A DNA stretch of 64,000 nt, taken from Actinobacillus indolicus. Lineage in GTDB: Bacteria; Pseudomonadota; Gammaproteobacteria; Enterobacterales; Pasteurellaceae. The stretch's first letter is position 1; every line of letters starts with the position of its first letter. Position numbers and translations under genes: made by a program. The notes under the pieces were generated by a model, which made no database searches, had not been told where the DNA came from, and saw nothing but the letters and a program-made list of their open reading frames with translations. This document shows positions 10,435 to 15,037 of this stretch, piece by piece. The DNA lies in NCBI RefSeq assembly GCF_901764975.1, contig NZ_CABFKH010000003.1, forward strand, positions 124,001 to 188,000, given 5' to 3'.

Positions 10435-10479
10435 ATTTTCTTATCTTATTTTCTCTACAGTTCTTAATTGATATTCTTC

Positions 10480-11547
10480 ATGAAGAAATTATTAGTCACA
10501 GGCGGAGCCGGCTTTATTGGCTCTGCAGTCGTTCGCCATATCATTAACGACACTCAAGATTCAGTGATTAACGTAGATAAATTAACCTACGCTGGTAATT
10601 TAGAATCACTCAAATCTGTTGAAAATAACCCACGTTATGCTTTTGAACAAGTTGATATTTGTGATAAAGCTGAATTGGAACGTGTATTTGCTCACCATCA
10701 GCCTGATGCAGTAATGCATCTTGCGGCGGAAAGTCACGTAGATCGTTCTATTGATGGTCCAGCAGCTTTTATTGAAACCAATATTGTTGGTACTTACACT
10801 TTGTTAGAAGTAGCTAGAGCTTATTGGAATAACTTACCTGAAGAAAGAAAATCAGCTTTCCGTTTCCACCATATTTCAACTGATGAAGTTTATGGTGATT
10901 TGGAAGGCACTGACGATCTTTTTACTGAAACTACGCCTTATGCCCCTTCTAGCCCTTATTCCGCTTCAAAAGCATCAAGCGATCACTTAGTTCGAGCTTG
11001 GTTACGTACCTATGGTTTACCAACCATTGTAACTAACTGCTCAAATAACTATGGTCCGTTCCATTTCCCTGAGAAATTGATCCCGTTAATGATTTTAAAT
11101 GCGTTAGAAGGTAAAAAATTACCAGTATATGGAAATGGTATGCAAATTCGCGACTGGTTATTTGTAGAAGATCACGCTCGTGCATTATATAAAGTGGTTA
11201 CAGAAGGTGCTGTCGGCGAAACTTACAATATTGGTGGACACAACGAGAAAGCTAATATTGAAGTAGTTCGTACGATTTGCGGTTTATTAGAAGAGTTAGT
11301 ACCAAATAAACCTGCTGGAGTAGCAAAATACGAAGATTTAATCACTTATGTGACTGACCGCCCAGGGCACGATGTGCGTTATGCGATTGATGCAACCAAA
11401 ATTGGTAATGAATTAGGTTGGAAGCCACAAGAAACCTTTGAAACCGGCATTCGTAAAACGGTGGAATGGTACTTAAATAATAAAAAATGGTGGAGCCGTG
11501 TATTAGATGGTTCTTATAATTTAGAACGTTTAGGTACAAATAAGTAG
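10480..11547 (+). CDS. rmlB: dTDP-glucose 4,6-dehydratase
   Basis: RmlB converts dTDP-glucose to dTDP-4-keto-6-deoxyglucose, the second step of dTDP-L-rhamnose synthesis. The 355-residue protein shows [14 protein letters not shown] at the NAD site, [25 protein letters not shown] with the catalytic Asp-Glu pair, and [10 protein letters not shown] with tyrosine and lysine. I start at the ATG at 10480 (MKKLLVTGG); an in-frame TTG at 10468 adds four hydrophobic residues and lacks a ribosome site. It is followed six bases later by rmlA. Codon choice here is visibly less AT-rich than in the genes before it. Confidence 0.96.
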
Positions 11548-11553
11548 GCTAAT

Positions 11554-12432
11554 ATGAAAGGTATTATTCTTGCAGGCGGCTCAGGCACTCGTCTTTATCC
11601 AATTACCCGTGGCGTGTCAAAACAGCTTCTTCCCGTTTACGATAAACCAATGATTTATTATCCGCTATCAGTTTTGATGTTAGCGGGAATTCGTGATGTC
11701 TTGGTTATCACAACGCCAGAAGATAATGACGCATTTAAACGCTTATTAGGCGATGGTTCTGATTTTGGAATCAATATTCAGTATGAAATTCAACCAAGCC
11801 CAGATGGTTTAGCACAAGCTTTCTTAATTGGTGAAAAGTTTATTGGCAATGATAGTGTCTGCTTGGTACTTGGTGATAACATTTTCTATGGTCAGCATTT
11901 TACTGCGGCTCTCAAAGAAGCAGCTGAACATGCAAATAATAAAGGTGCATCAGTGTTTGGTTATCAAGTAAAAGATCCTGAACGTTTCGGTGTAGTTGAA
12001 TTTGATGAAAACTTTAAGGCGATTTCAATCGAAGAAAAACCAACTCAGCCAAAATCTAATTATGCTGTAACAGGTTTATATTTCTATGATAGTCGTGTTG
12101 TAGAGTTTGCTAAGCAAGTGAAGCCTTCTGCGCGTGGAGAGTTAGAAATTACTACATTAAATGAAATGTATTTAAACGATGGAACGTTGAATGTTCAATT
12201 ACTAGGACGTGGTTTTGCTTGGTTGGATACAGGAATACATGAAAGTCTTCACCAAGCGGCCGCTTTTGTACAAGCTGTACAAAATATTCAAAATATGCAA
12301 ATTGCTTGTTTAGAAGAAATTGCGTGGCGTAATGGTTGGCTTACTTCTCAACAAGTAGAAACTCTTGCGAAACCCATGGCTAAAAATGAATACGGTCAGT
12401 ACTTATTACGTTTAGTAAAAGGTGGTAAATAA
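11554..12432 (+). CDS. rmlA: Glucose-1-phosphate thymidylyltransferase
   Basis: RmlA couples glucose-1-phosphate and dTTP to dTDP-glucose, the committed step of rhamnose activation. The 292-residue sequence has the nucleotidyltransferase loop [20 protein letters not shown] (residues 8-27), [14 protein letters not shown], and VLGDNIFYG with the metal-binding aspartate. It overlaps rmlD by the last base of its TAA. The order here is rmlB-A-D followed by two foreign genes and then rmlC, unlike the E. coli order B-D-A-C. Confidence 0.96.
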
Positions 12433-13310
12433 TGGCTAAGTTTCTAATTACTGGTGCAAAAGGTCAAGTTGGATATTGTCTAACAGAGCAATTAACAGGC
12501 AAAGGAGATATTTTAGCAGTAGATCGTGATGAGTTAGATATTACTGATAGGGATGCTGTTTTTAGTGCAGTTAAAACATTTAAACCTGATGTCATTATTA
12601 ATGCGGCTGCTCATACAGCCGTTGACCGAGCAGAAAGTGAAGTTGAGTTATCAGAAGCAATCAACGTAAAAGGTTCACAATATCTCGCGGAAGCTGCAAG
12701 TGAAATTGATGCTGTTATTTTACATATTTCTACCGATTATGTTTTTGAAGGTACTGGCACGGGCGAATATAAAGAAGGCGATCAAACCAATCCGCAAGGC
12801 GTTTATGGGCGTACAAAATTAGAAGGCGAAATTGTCGTTCAACAAGCAAATTCTCGTTCTATTATTTTACGCACAGCTTGGGTATTTGGTGAACACGGAC
12901 ATAATTTTGTCAAAACGATGCTTCGTTTAGCGAAAGATCGTGATAGCTTAGGTATTGTAGGCGATCAATTTGGTGGCCCAACCTACGCAGGCGATATTGC
13001 AAAAGCATTAATTGAAATTGCCAATCAAATTCTTGCTGGCAAAGAAAATGCTTTTGGTGTTTACCACTTTACCGGTAAGCCTTATGTGAGCTGGTATGAA
13101 TTTGCCAAAGCGATTTTTGCCGAAGCAGAATTGCAAAATATTCTTGAAAAGTCACCGCTTGTAAACAGTATTGCAACCAGTGATTACCCAACACCAGCAA
13201 AACGCCCTGCAAATTCACGTTTAGATTTGACGAAAATTAAACAAGTATTTAACATTGAAGCAAGTGATTGGCGAAATGCCTTAACGAATATTAAAGCATA
13301 TCAAAGTTAA
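12432..13310 (+). CDS. rmlD: dTDP-4-dehydrorhamnose reductase
   Basis: RmlD performs the final NAD(P)H reduction to dTDP-L-rhamnose. The 292 residues begin [20 protein letters not shown]. They contain INAAAHTAVDRAESE, ISTDYVFEG, and YGRTKLEGE with the catalytic tyrosine and lysine, then RTAWVFGEHG. The ATG shares a base with the rmlA stop (TAATG). A perfect uptake signal (reverse ACAAGCGGT) lies in the coding sequence at 13154-13162. It is the only one I found before 16858, which suggests the rml part has had a longer stay in this lineage than the genes before it. Confidence 0.96.
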   Translation: MAKFLITGAKGQVGYCLTEQLTGKGDILAVDRDELDITDRDAVFSAVKTFKPDVIINAAAHTAVDRAESEVELSEAINVKGSQYLAEAASEIDAVILHISTDYVFEGTGTGEYKEGDQTNPQGVYGRTKLEGEIVVQQANSRSIILRTAWVFGEHGHNFVKTMLRLAKDRDSLGIVGDQFGGPTYAGDIAKALIEIANQILAGKENAFGVYHFTGKPYVSWYEFAKAIFAEAELQNILEKSPLVNSIATSDYPTPAKRPANSRLDLTKIKQVFNIEASDWRNALTNIKAYQS

Positions 13311-13325
13311 ATAGAGGGAGGCGAC

Positions 13326-13922
13326 ATGAGCTTAATTCCAATGAATGAAATTACTCGCTTAGATCAATTAGATCCGAAAGGTAGCTACAGCTATGCAGAC
13401 TATCTTGTTTGGCAATTGAAAGAGCGGGTAGAAATTATCAAAGGTAAAATTATGGCAATGTCGCCATCACCAAATAGGTTACATCAGCGAATTTCGATGA
13501 AATTAACGAAAGCATTCCTTGATGTGTTTTCCGGTCATCAATGTGAGTTGTATGTAGCCCCATTTGATGTTCGTTTTCCAGATAAAAATGGCAATGTTAA
13601 AACGGTGGTACAGCCCGATTTATGTGTCATTTGTGACCCAAGTAAATTAGATGAAAGGGGATGCCTTGGTGCGCCAGATTTAGTCGTGGAAATTCTTTCT
13701 CCAGGGAATTCTAAGCGAGAAATGAAGGATAAATACGATCTCTATCAAGAACAAGGTGTCAGTGAGTATTGGGTTGTTCGCCCTGAAGAACAGAATATTC
13801 ATATCTATATTTTGAAAGACGGACAATATATCGGGATCGCTCCTGTCGTTGAGGGAGATACAATTACATCGATTAAATTCCCTGCATTAAGTTTCTCAAC
13901 CGCAGGGTTATATGATTTATAA
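13326..13922 (+). CDS. Uma2-family (DUF820) nuclease-like protein inside the rml operon
   Basis: This 198-residue protein has the Uma2/DUF820 layout of the PD-(D/E)xK superfamily. VVQPDLCVI (about 94-102) gives the first acidic residue, PDLVVEILSPGN (about 117-128) gives Asp118 and Glu122, and KDKYDLYQEQGVSEYWVV (about 134-151) gives the lysine and the family's GV-EYW end motif. All putative catalytic residues look intact. Uma2 proteins are abundant in cyanobacteria and have no settled function. Here one sits 15 bases after rmlD with its own ribosome site (GAGGGAGG), abuts a RelA/SpoT-domain gene with no gap, and precedes rmlC. Nothing links it to rhamnose chemistry. The family call is firm; the function is unknown. 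Confidence 0.85.
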   Translation: MSLIPMNEITRLDQLDPKGSYSYADYLVWQLKERVEIIKGKIMAMSPSPNRLHQRISMKLTKAFLDVFSGHQCELYVAPFDVRFPDKNGNVKTVVQPDLCVICDPSKLDERGCLGAPDLVVEILSPGNSKREMKDKYDLYQEQGVSEYWVVRPEEQNIHIYILKDGQYIGIAPVVEGDTITSIKFPALSFSTAGLYDL

Positions 13923-14486
13923 ATGATGATAGAAAAAATTGAACGTTTAATTGATGAAATTAATAAAGTTCATCTTGCATTTTCACAGGATTATTTTGAA
14001 ACAGGTAAAGTGGAAAAAATAAATTTGAAGCATACCCTGTCAAAAGTACCCGTTAAACATATTTTATCTTATCGTCTGAATTTGCACGAAGCGATCAACG
14101 ACTATCTTTATCGGGCAAATTTATATGATGTGGCTTATTTTTATCGAGTTAAAACCTCTGAATCTATTTTAGATAAGATCGAACGTTTTAGCCTTCGTAG
14201 TGATGGATATCCCGTTAATAGTATTTTGAATGATATTTTTGGTGCAAGAATGATTGTATCAAGCGATGATATTAGTCAAGTTATGGAAAAGCTTGATGAG
14301 TGGAAGGAAAAATATGGCTTAAAAAATTGGTATCTAAGAGATAAAGAAGAATATATTGGTATTCATATTTATTTTAAAAACTCAAGCAACTTTTATTATC
14401 CTTGGGAATTACAAATTTGGGATAAAAAAGATGCCGAAAAGAATATTCAAAGCCATAGAAAATATAAACGTAACTTTGTGAAATAA
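13923..14486 (+). CDS. RelA/SpoT-domain protein (possible small alarmone synthetase)
   Basis: This 187-residue protein resembles a stand-alone RelA/SpoT synthetase domain without hydrolase, TGS or ACT domains. The order of motifs is right: YRVKTSESILDKI (74-86), LNDIFGARMIV (102-112) with the metal-binding aspartate, EYIGIHIYFK (143-152) in place of the usual GY-x-x-H loop, and WELQIW (161-166) with the catalytic-type glutamate. AEKNIQSHRKYKR (171-183) follows. This family includes (p)ppGpp synthetases and the toxSAS growth inhibitors, plus uncharacterised members. The gene begins immediately after the Uma2 stop, with ATGATG and no strong ribosome site, so translation is likely coupled. It ends eight bases before rmlC. 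Activity is unproven. Confidence 0.7.
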   Translation: MMIEKIERLIDEINKVHLAFSQDYFETGKVEKINLKHTLSKVPVKHILSYRLNLHEAINDYLYRANLYDVAYFYRVKTSESILDKIERFSLRSDGYPVNSILNDIFGARMIVSSDDISQVMEKLDEWKEKYGLKNWYLRDKEEYIGIHIYFKNSSNFYYPWELQIWDKKDAEKNIQSHRKYKRNFVK

Positions 14487-14494
14487 GAGTAAAA

Positions 14495-15037
14495 ATGAAA
14501 ATTATTGAAACAAAAATTCCTGATGTAAAATTATTGGAGCCACAAGCCTTTGGCGACGAACGTGGCTTTTTCATGGAAACCTTTCGCGATGAATGGTTTA
14601 AACAAAATGTCGCAGATCGTACTTTTGTACAAGAAAACCATTCGAAGTCAGTAAAAGGTGTTTTACGTGGGCTTCATTATCAAACTGAAAATACTCAAGG
14701 AAAATTAGTACGCGTGGTTCAAGGTGCTGTATTTGATGTTGCCGTAGATTTACGTAAAAGCTCACCAACGTTTGGACAATGGGTGGGGGAAATTCTATCT
14801 GCTGAAAATAAGCGTCAATTATGGGTGCCTGAAGGTTTTGCACATGGTTTTTATGTATTAACAGAAACTGCCGAATTTACCTATAAATGTACAGACTACT
14901 ATAATCCAAAAGCAGAGCATTCTTTAATTTGGAATGATAAAACTGTAGGGGTTGAGTGGCCTTTAGATGGCGAACCGAGTTTGTCAGCTAAAGATTTGGC
15001 AGGAAAGCTTTTGTCTGATGCAGTTGTATTTGAGTAA
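14495..15037 (+). CDS. rmlC: dTDP-4-dehydrorhamnose 3,5-epimerase
   Basis: RmlC epimerises C3 and C5 of the 4-keto intermediate between RmlB and RmlD. The 180-residue cupin shows GDERGFFMETFR (about 20-31), FVQENHSKSVKGVLRGLHYQ with the catalytic histidine, VFDVAVDLRKSSPTFGQW, and WVPEGFAHGFYVL. It is separated from the other three rml genes by the Uma2 and RelA/SpoT-domain genes but reads in the same direction and is followed by a strong terminator, so all six probably share a transcript. Confidence 0.96.
   Translation: MKIIETKIPDVKLLEPQAFGDERGFFMETFRDEWFKQNVADRTFVQENHSKSVKGVLRGLHYQTENTQGKLVRVVQGAVFDVAVDLRKSSPTFGQWVGEILSAENKRQLWVPEGFAHGFYVLTETAEFTYKCTDYYNPKAEHSLIWNDKTVGVEWPLDGEPSLSAKDLAGKLLSDAVVFE

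What the first reader, a model, noticed from the sequence alone, without database searches (positions are those of the whole stretch)
13326..14486. Uma2-like nuclease and RelA/SpoT-domain protein paired inside the rhamnose operon
Two genes with no known link to sugar activation sit end to end (no gap) between rmlD and rmlC. Seen: intact-looking PD-(D/E)xK residues in the first and intact-looking alarmone-synthetase motifs, including the two acidic catalytic positions, in the second. Known: Uma2 proteins have no settled role, and stand-alone RelA/SpoT domains include (p)ppGpp synthetases and toxSAS growth inhibitors. Inference: they may form a two-gene stress, toxin or defence module hitchhiking in a variable surface locus, or a control unit tying O-antigen supply to stress. 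The split of the otherwise continuous rml set supports insertion.
Basis: partly seen in the sequence, partly recalled or inferred. Interest (0 to 1): 0.8.

Follow-up and report, generated by a model that had tools for sequence, protein, structure and literature searches.

The report
Solo toxSAS-like gene in sugar operon
Two unrelated single genes, a likely nuclease and a likely tRNA-modifying growth inhibitor that lacks the usual antidote gene beside it, have each landed in the same gap of a sugar-making operon that often collects genes of the kind bacteria use against viruses.

Summary
In detail: an intact Uma2-family gene (13326-13922) and an intact RelA/SpoT-domain gene ("rel", 13923-14486) lie end to end between rmlD and rmlC. 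The two-gene reading fails: of 140 Pasteurellaceae genomes rel occurs in 32, uma2 in 15, both in 6 (p = 0.11), adjacent only here.

Each is a solo gene. The rmlD|rmlC gap of 39 genomes holds rel alone in 10, uma2 alone in 2, both in 1, other ORFs in 1, and is at most 228 bp in 25. The rmlB|rmlA gap holds other compact defence-type genes in 4 of 39.

By sequence, predicted fold and active site, rel is closest to the tRNA-pyrophosphorylating toxSAS toxins FaRel2 and PhRel2. Unlike those it has no antitoxin gene beside it and no antitoxin domain. It is strongly conserved (dN/dS mostly 0.03-0.08), 76-78% identical between the window and streptococcal prophages, and changed genomic site at least 23 times on the tree.

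Best explanation: a mobile solo toxSAS, probably an infection-triggered translation blocker. Enzyme class is well supported; substrate, trigger and defence role are inference. New variant of a known kind.

The parts
13923..14486 (+). rel: 187-aa solo toxSAS-like RelA/SpoT-domain protein (predicted ATP-dependent pyrophosphokinase)
   Evidence: PF04607 6.3e-07; phrog_4012 1.7e-80; FaRel2 best by profile 2.6e-07 and by fold Z 14.2; active-site residues conserved
13326..13922 (+). uma2: 198-aa Uma2-family (putative PD-(D/E)xK nuclease) protein, independent insertion in the same gap
   Evidence: PF05685 2.9e-33; PADLOC candidate family PDC-S03 1.4e-49; solved relatives 9y1l 1.4e-21, 6okh 9.3e-19
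13920..13928 (+). uma2 stop abutting the rel start codons (TAA ATG ATG); no separate ribosome site obvious, so translation is probably coupled here (inference)
   Evidence: sequence; relatives start at the second ATG
14145..14414 (+). rel active-site span R75 to Q164: R75, K77, S81, K85, R88, D104, G107, R109, G-loop Y144, E162, Q164
   Evidence: alignment to FaRel2, conservation over 58 rows, FaRel2 residue roles from PMC11782079 passages
14016..14036 (+). rel K32 to T38, the stretch that aligns with FaRel2 K28/R29 (tRNA acceptor-stem contact)
   Evidence: PMC11559606 passages
12432..13310 (+). rmlD, upstream edge of the insertion slot
   Evidence: PF04321 3.6e-105
14495..15037 (+). rmlC, downstream edge of the insertion slot
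   Evidence: PF00908 2.6e-73
11554..12432 (+). rmlA; the rmlA|rmlD junction has no insert over 150 bp in 0 of 39 genomes
10468..11547 (+). rmlB ORF; the rmlB|rmlA junction is the second slot in relatives (over 150 bp in 5 of 39), empty here

Best explanation
The two genes are separate, single-gene insertions that share one landing slot of the rml operon. The second (rel) is a solo, antitoxin-less relative of the tRNA-targeting toxSAS branch of RelA/SpoT proteins, nearest to FaRel2 and PhRel2. Shown: profile, predicted-fold and active-site match to FaRel2, strong purifying selection, repeated relocation as a bare ORF, and no recurrent partner gene. [quoted passage not shown] it is kept quiet by low, operon-driven expression or an intrinsically inactive state and becomes active on phage infection, giving abortive infection. 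It spreads among Pasteurellaceae, streptococci, Neisseria and Moraxella (many naturally competent, recalled) and by prophages: within a slot by homologous recombination through the flanks, and rarely to new sites. Uma2 is a candidate defence nuclease inserted independently.
For: Profile search of solved structures: FaRel2 2.6e-07, next relative (YwaC) 0.054. Predicted model (pLDDT 88.5) matches FaRel2 at Z 14.2, 157 residues aligned over residues 1-180, rmsd 2.9; RelQ only Z 7.8 over 44-187. FaRel2 ATP-site and catalytic residues are kept in 56-58 of 58 relatives (roles from passages of PMC11782079). Distant relatives at about 32% identity in Geobacillus phage GBSV1, Paenibacillus phage Bloom and a Ligilactobacillus plasmid carry a SocA_Panacea gene directly downstream, as PhRel2 toxins do (PMC8832971 passages). 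No shared immediate partner and no cassette-like flanking DNA across unrelated contexts. At least 23 context changes for 24 contexts over 60 tree rows; 10 for 11 contexts over the 26 Pasteurellaceae rows. dN/dS 0.014-0.147, mostly 0.03-0.08, where dS could be estimated. Defence-type neighbours: hsdS upstream and hsdR downstream in 6 loci of one tree clade, type IIG enzyme, AbiD, Fic, and the cI-integrase interval of streptococcal prophages. rel shares its slot with uma2, and other compact defence-type genes sit in the second rml slot.
Against: No activity, toxicity or phage protection has been measured. A toxin without antitoxin should be hard to tolerate, and no trigger, antitoxin or autoinhibitory part was found. 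FaRel2 K28 is S in 32 of 58 relatives and K in 23 (R29 is H/R/K in 57 of 58), so tRNA contact is not proven. Foldseek's TM-scores to FaRel2 are moderate (0.54 and 0.62, rmsd 4.0). Many of the 80 named loci lie beside housekeeping genes, and no background rate for defence neighbours was computed. PADLOC matches for rel are weak and partial (PDC-S33: 54 of 58 members at E up to 0.01, best 1.3e-08; window 7.3e-05 over part of a 349-aa model). The Lactococcus copy (53% identity) has a Phd/YefM-type ORF just upstream, so an antitoxin may exist in some lineages. Strong conservation also fits a non-toxic enzyme.
Confidence: 0.5

Rival explanations
1. rel is a non-toxic small alarmone synthetase that makes (p)ppGpp (or pGpp/ppApp) and modulates growth under stress; the operon position only supplies expression.
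For: RelA_SpoT domain with intact active site; carried by many housekeeping operons with no antitoxin found; strong purifying selection, at the level of the neighbouring rmlC.
Against: Fold match to RelQ/RelP is weaker and begins at residue 41-45, leaving out the part that matches the FaRel2 N-terminal extension; PMC11782079 passages say that this N terminus is unresolved in RelP and RelQ. No C-terminal helical bundle in the 187-aa model.
Confidence: 0.2
2. rel is a toxin of a toxin-antitoxin system whose antitoxin is encoded elsewhere or is an RNA.
For: toxSAS in the passages read have dedicated neutralisers in cis or trans. A Phd/YefM ORF lies just upstream of the Lactococcus copy.
Against: Gaps of a few bases, or overlaps, on both sides in several rml, glf and tsaD contexts leave no room for an adjacent gene. 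No conserved overlapping frame and no synonymous-site hot spot inside rel. Panacea antitoxin genes occur in 3 of 32 rel-bearing and 16 of 108 rel-free family genomes, and not in the window's genome. Other antitoxin families were not searched for genome-wide.
Confidence: 0.2
3. uma2 and rel form a two-gene stress, toxin or defence module.
For: They abut and rel translation may be coupled to uma2 here. Both occur in 6 of 140 genomes, somewhat more than the 3.4 expected, and in 3 of these within 3 kb of each other (window, G098, G127).
Against: Adjacent in 1 of 140; p = 0.11; each fills the same slot alone (10 and 2 of 39). In the flanks held for 80 named rel loci, uma2 is found in 1 (L047), on the far side of the operon, and adjacent in none.
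Confidence: 0.04
4. Selfish operon passengers without host function, kept by repeated transfer.
For: Patchy presence, at least 23 relocations, broken or fragmentary copies in 6 of 32 family genomes, lower G+C than flanks in 15 of 15 loci compared.
Against: dN/dS mostly 0.03-0.08 means that the protein's activity is selected; no transposition or homing machinery seen in the gene maps around the ORF and no shared flanking sequence.
Confidence: 0.1

Closest known systems
FaRel2 (Coprobacillus sp. D7 toxSAS)
   Same: Best match by profile and fold, including the N-terminal helices; same ATP-site and catalytic residues.
   Different: About 24% identity in the structural alignment; FaRel2 is encoded with antitoxin ATfaRel2, rel with none; K28 not conserved.
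PhRel2 (phage Lily, Bacillus subtilis la1a)
   Same: Phage Lily's protein is 32.3% identical over 96% of rel; PMC11782079 names the Lily toxin PhRel2 (passage).
   Different: The three related loci examined (GBSV1, Bloom, Ligilactobacillus; not Lily itself) have a SocA_Panacea gene downstream; rel falls in a separate, starred group without it.
CapRel (fused anti-phage toxSAS)
   Same: toxSYNTH-type fold (9erv Z 5.7, 7ztb Z 5.6); single gene; anti-phage role proposed here.
   Different: rel has no room for a pseudo-zinc-finger antitoxin/sensor domain: 187 aa, all in the synthetase fold.
RelQ/RelP small alarmone synthetases
   Same: Same catalytic fold and ATP site; solo genes.
   Different: Fold match Z 5.7-7.8 and only from residue 41-45 on; no C-terminal bundle in rel.
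Exported alarmone synthetases (SaEAS, VpEAS)
   Same: Solo SAS genes without immunity genes (PMC12691689 passages).
   Different: Those carry signal peptides and act outside the cell; rel begins directly with the helix of the synthetase fold (no signal-peptide program was run).
Uma2 family / PADLOC PDC-S03
   Same: Near full-length family match of the first gene.
   Different: No function established in what I saw; here and in relatives a lone gene in various gaps.

Membership tests
tRNA-targeting toxSAS (FaRel2/PhRel2 type) | toxSYNTH fold with intact ATP-site and catalytic residues | tested here: met
   Z 14.2 to FaRel2; residues kept in 56-58 of 58
tRNA-targeting toxSAS (FaRel2/PhRel2 type) | Ordered N-terminal helical extension, unresolved in RelP/RelQ | tested here: met
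   Model helices 2-27 and 44-62; FaRel2 aligned from residue 1, RelQ from 44; by prediction only
tRNA-targeting toxSAS (FaRel2/PhRel2 type) | Basic residues for the tRNA acceptor stem at FaRel2 K28/R29 | tested here: inconclusive
   Position of K28: S 32, K 23 of 58; of R29: H/R/K 57 of 58; the region is said to vary among toxSAS
tRNA-targeting toxSAS (FaRel2/PhRel2 type) | Pyrophosphorylates tRNA 3'-CCA and inhibits growth | not testable with these tools
   Needs enzyme and toxicity assays
toxSAS toxin-antitoxin system | Dedicated antitoxin gene adjacent (ATfaRel2-type, Panacea) or fused domain | tested here: not met
   No recurrent immediate neighbour over unrelated contexts; no room for a fused domain in 187 aa; Panacea not associated. 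An unlinked antitoxin is not excluded; the Lactococcus copy has a Phd/YefM ORF upstream.
(p)ppGpp small alarmone synthetases RelQ/RelP | C-terminal helical bundle for oligomerisation after the SYNTH domain | tested here: not met
   The protein ends six residues after its last helix, 168-181; feature described in PMC11782079
CapRel | C-terminal pseudo-zinc-finger antitoxin and phage sensor | tested here: not met
   Length and model; domain described in PMC9712102 passages
Uma2 (PF05685) | Family profile match over the whole domain | tested here: met
   2.9e-33, profile 3-168 of 172
Uma2 (PF05685) | Nuclease activity | not testable with these tools
   Needs an assay
Two-gene uma2-rel module | Partners co-occur and stay adjacent across genomes | tested here: not met
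   Both in 6 of 140, adjacent in 1 of 140, p = 0.11

The most novel reading that the evidence does not exclude
rel is a complete one-gene immune system: a 187-aa toxSAS that holds itself inactive without any antitoxin, senses phage infection directly and then pyrophosphorylates tRNA, and that travels as a bare ORF between the genes of core operons in mucosal bacteria and prophages across phyla.
Probability: 0.3. Interest if true: 0.85.

Novelty: new variant of a known kind. Interest (0 to 1): 0.62.

Why it matters
The toxSAS described in the passages I read are encoded with, or fused to, a neutraliser. A widely spread, strongly conserved toxSAS-like enzyme with no detectable neutraliser would show either that such enzymes can be self-restrained or that their product is tolerable, and it is small enough to test directly. 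It also shows a way for defence-type genes to settle: as single ORFs between the genes of ordinary operons, with the rml operon of Pasteurellaceae as a countable hot spot.

Tried and rejected
Two-gene module: rejected on co-occurrence and adjacency. O-antigen control unit: rejected because the contexts seen outside the family, and 8 of 26 intact ones inside it, have no polysaccharide link that I could see. Hidden antitoxin inside or beside rel: the synonymous-site scan and alternative frames showed no hot spot; flanks of unrelated contexts share little beyond hsdS ends, common host genes and short repeats. Unlinked Panacea antitoxin: no association. Uptake-sequence route: none of two 9-base Pasteurellaceae-type motifs in the Pasteurellaceae copies, one Neisseria-type 10-mer in five Neisseria copies (motifs recalled). 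E. coli: no match at DNA level in 5,426 genomes; no protein search is offered there. A phylum-wide sample gave 3 of 398 genomes: the window's, one of its family, and a weak partial match. Literature: ten searches listed no paper on this solo group that I recognised, but the 2020 toxSAS survey and the 2021 tRNA paper are not held, so I cannot say that it is undescribed. Corrected on checking: a first count of context changes (27 contexts, 26 changes) split two contexts in two and kept an unclear row; the corrected count is 24 contexts, 23 changes, 60 rows. The window-L120 value is out of register and was ignored; four other pairs there had saturated dS.

Full report
What is there. The window holds rmlB, rmlA, rmlD, then a 198-aa Uma2-family ORF (13326-13922), a 187-aa RelA/SpoT-domain ORF (13923-14486, called rel here) and rmlC (14495-15037), all on the + strand. 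Pfam gives Uma2 at 2.9e-33 and RelA_SpoT at 6.3e-07, just above its cut-off. PHROGs gives phrog_4012, a phage family of unknown function, at 1.7e-80 over the whole of rel.

They are not a pair. Among 140 genomes of the window's family, rel matches occur in 32 and uma2 in 15; 13 of the 15 uma2 matches are full or nearly full length, G019 has 81 residues and G159 a weak, broken one. Six genomes have both, against about 3.4 expected; Fisher p = 0.11. Only the window has the two side by side. In G098 and G127 they lie 2.6-2.9 kb apart: in G098 uma2 is upstream of rmlB and rel in the rmlD|rmlC gap; in G127 rel is upstream of an rmlB-like gene and uma2 beyond another ORF, with a small second uma2-like fragment between. 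In the flanks held for 80 named rel loci, uma2 is found in one, not adjacent.

A shared slot. In 39 genomes with rmlD and rmlC, the gap between them is -1 to 228 bp in 25, holds rel alone in 10 (one of them, G159, broken), uma2 alone in 2, both in 1 (the window), and a 2-kb stretch with DUF5672 ORFs in 1. The rmlB|rmlA gap exceeds 150 bp in 5 of the same 39: a DUF1016/YhcG nuclease (PADLOC PDC-S02, 1.6e-136) in G091; an AlbA_2/Fic-like_C protein in G035; a nucleotidyltransferase plus a NTase_sub_bind/HepT-like ORF in G094; a PD-T4-5 match (1.5e-14) in G019; and 222 bp in G157 in which I saw no ORF of its own. The rmlA|rmlD gap does so in 0 of 39. PD-T4-5 is described as an abortive-infection gene distantly related to AbiF/D (PMC9519451, passages). 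The rml operon is therefore a hot spot for compact, mostly defence-type genes; that 'PDC' marks candidates only is recalled.

Solo mobility of rel. Of 177 relatives found in named genomes, the best 80 were kept by the tool. A crude longest-ORF map puts an ORF on the same strand immediately upstream in 77 of 80 and downstream in 71 of 80; spurious small ORFs enter these counts. Contexts include parE-parC, deoB-punA, thiL-pgpA, rsmA, leuC-leuD and hsdS-hsdR; gene names without a Pfam call are read from N-terminal sequence by recall. In the window's family they include rmlD-rmlC, glf, tsaD, rpmE and (a broken copy) rbfA-truB, also partly named by recall. In the streptococcal phages Javan5 and phiGBSVK-D rel lies between a cI-like repressor and the integrase. 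For the tree, 113 loci gave 84 rows after 16 duplicates and 16 further streptococcal loci were left out and three Panacea-linked relatives added. The Pasteurellaceae copies form one group (26 rows, 98/98). With context labels assigned by me, 24 contexts over 60 rows need at least 23 changes, and 11 contexts over 26 Pasteurellaceae rows need 10. Flanks of unrelated contexts share no cassette-like sequence; the conserved unit is the ORF.

How it travels. Window rel is 76-78% identical in protein to streptococcal phage and satellite-phage copies and 72% in DNA to phage Javan5. rel has lower G+C than its flanks in 15 of 15 loci compared (of 80), by about 1 to 15 points. For G151/G120 and G151/G078, rel dS is 0.48 and 0.41 while rmlD and rmlC are at 1.4-2.3, and in some pairs high identity reaches into the last 100-200 bp of rmlD. 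So there rel was exchanged more recently than its flanks, most simply by homologous recombination inside the slot. Other pairs do not show this (window/G098: rel 1.43, rmlD 0.96, rmlC 1.45; G098/G094: rel 2.21, rmlD 1.43, rmlC 1.59). Competence as the route is recalled, not tested.

Selection. dN/dS is 0.014-0.147, mostly 0.03-0.08, in the pairs where dS could be estimated; rmlC has 0.03-0.06 and rmlD 0.05-0.15. Yet 6 of 32 family genomes carry only broken or fragmentary copies (G134, G064, G061, G159, G062, G068): G061 and G064 after tsaD, G062 just before cyaY in what looks like the same site, G068 beside rpmE, G159 in rml. The gene is functional where intact and dispensable.

What rel works like. 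A profile of 14 relatives finds FaRel2 first among solved structures (2.6e-07) with YwaC far behind (0.054); the single sequence alone found no RelA/SpoT relative there. The predicted model (58 sequences, pLDDT 88.5, pTM 0.85) matches FaRel2 at Z 14.2, rmsd 2.9, 157 residues from 1 to 180; RelQ reaches 7.8 and CapRel 5.6-5.7; Foldseek also ranks FaRel2 first, with TM-scores of 0.54 and 0.62. The residues that bind ATP and Mg or form the G-loop in FaRel2 (PMC11782079, passages) are R75, K77, S81, K85, R88, D104, G107, R109, Y144, E162 and Q164 here, kept in 56-58 of 58 rows. At the FaRel2 tRNA-contact pair K28/R29 (PMC11559606, passages) the first is mostly S or K and the second basic in 57 of 58. 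The phage Lily protein, named PhRel2 in a passage of PMC11782079, is 32% identical. Three loci of such relatives (GBSV1, Bloom, Ligilactobacillus) have a Panacea antitoxin gene directly downstream; rel does not.

No antitoxin found. In several rml, glf and tsaD contexts rel is separated from its neighbours by a few bases or overlaps them. No immediate neighbour recurs across unrelated contexts; generic ABC-transporter ATPases appear near several. There is no conserved overlapping frame or local excess of synonymous conservation. Panacea genes are found in 3 of 32 rel-bearing and 16 of 108 rel-free family genomes. One exception to tell: the deep-branching Lactococcus copy has a Phd/YefM ORF (3.9e-08) just upstream. 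An unlinked antitoxin is not excluded.

Mechanism offered. The most likely reading is an ATP-dependent pyrophosphokinase of tRNA 3' ends that stops translation when activated, serving as a one-gene abortive-infection function. The prophage position and some neighbours point that way: hsdS upstream and hsdR downstream in 6 loci of one clade, a type IIG enzyme (L067, with the same ORF in L082), AbiD (L102) and Fic (L089). Enzyme class: well supported. Substrate: inferred. Trigger and defence role: inference. Uma2 is a candidate defence nuclease by family only.

Novelty. It is a new variant of a known kind: toxSAS-like, but solo and mobile. Exported alarmone synthetases without immunity genes are known (PMC12691689, passages), but they are secreted. 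Two key surveys could not be read, so the group may already have a name there.

Noticed in passing
window 10468-15037 and loci L021, L235, L253, L254, L230: The rml operon of Pasteurellaceae is a hot spot: over 150 bp at rmlB|rmlA in 5 of 39, at rmlA|rmlD in 0 of 39, and a gene at rmlD|rmlC in 14 of 39 genomes, mostly compact defence-type genes.
   Followed up: partly
L057, L067, L071, L082, L085, L090: The streptococcal parE-parC interval holds rel with an adenylyltransferase-type gene, a type IIG restriction enzyme or unknown ORFs: a second compact variable island.
   Followed up: partly
L041 4709-4942: A Phd/YefM-type ORF, absent from the gene table, lies just upstream of the Lactococcus plasmid rel homologue; the segment with the homologue is present twice on the plasmid.
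   Followed up: partly
L109, L111, L116, L117, L119, L123: rel lies within type I restriction operons: hsdS upstream (adjacent in five, one ORF between in L117) and hsdR downstream, in methylotrophs, betaproteobacteria and a cyanobacterium; it recalls the tRNA nuclease PrrC (comparison recalled).
   Followed up: partly
L252 (G090 rmlD-rmlC): A 228-bp gap before rmlC has a short stretch resembling the end of rel by eye, beside an interrupted rmlD; possibly a decayed copy, but no significant match.
   Followed up: partly
L039 (NZ_CP119142.1): A 2.17-Mb Neisseria gonorrhoeae record is filed as a plasmid; its size is that of a chromosome.
   Followed up: no
L099 (BMPS01000006.1): A record named Streptomyces cinereus carries a rel copy that groups with Alysiella and Neisseria; possibly a misnamed or contaminated assembly.
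   Followed up: no
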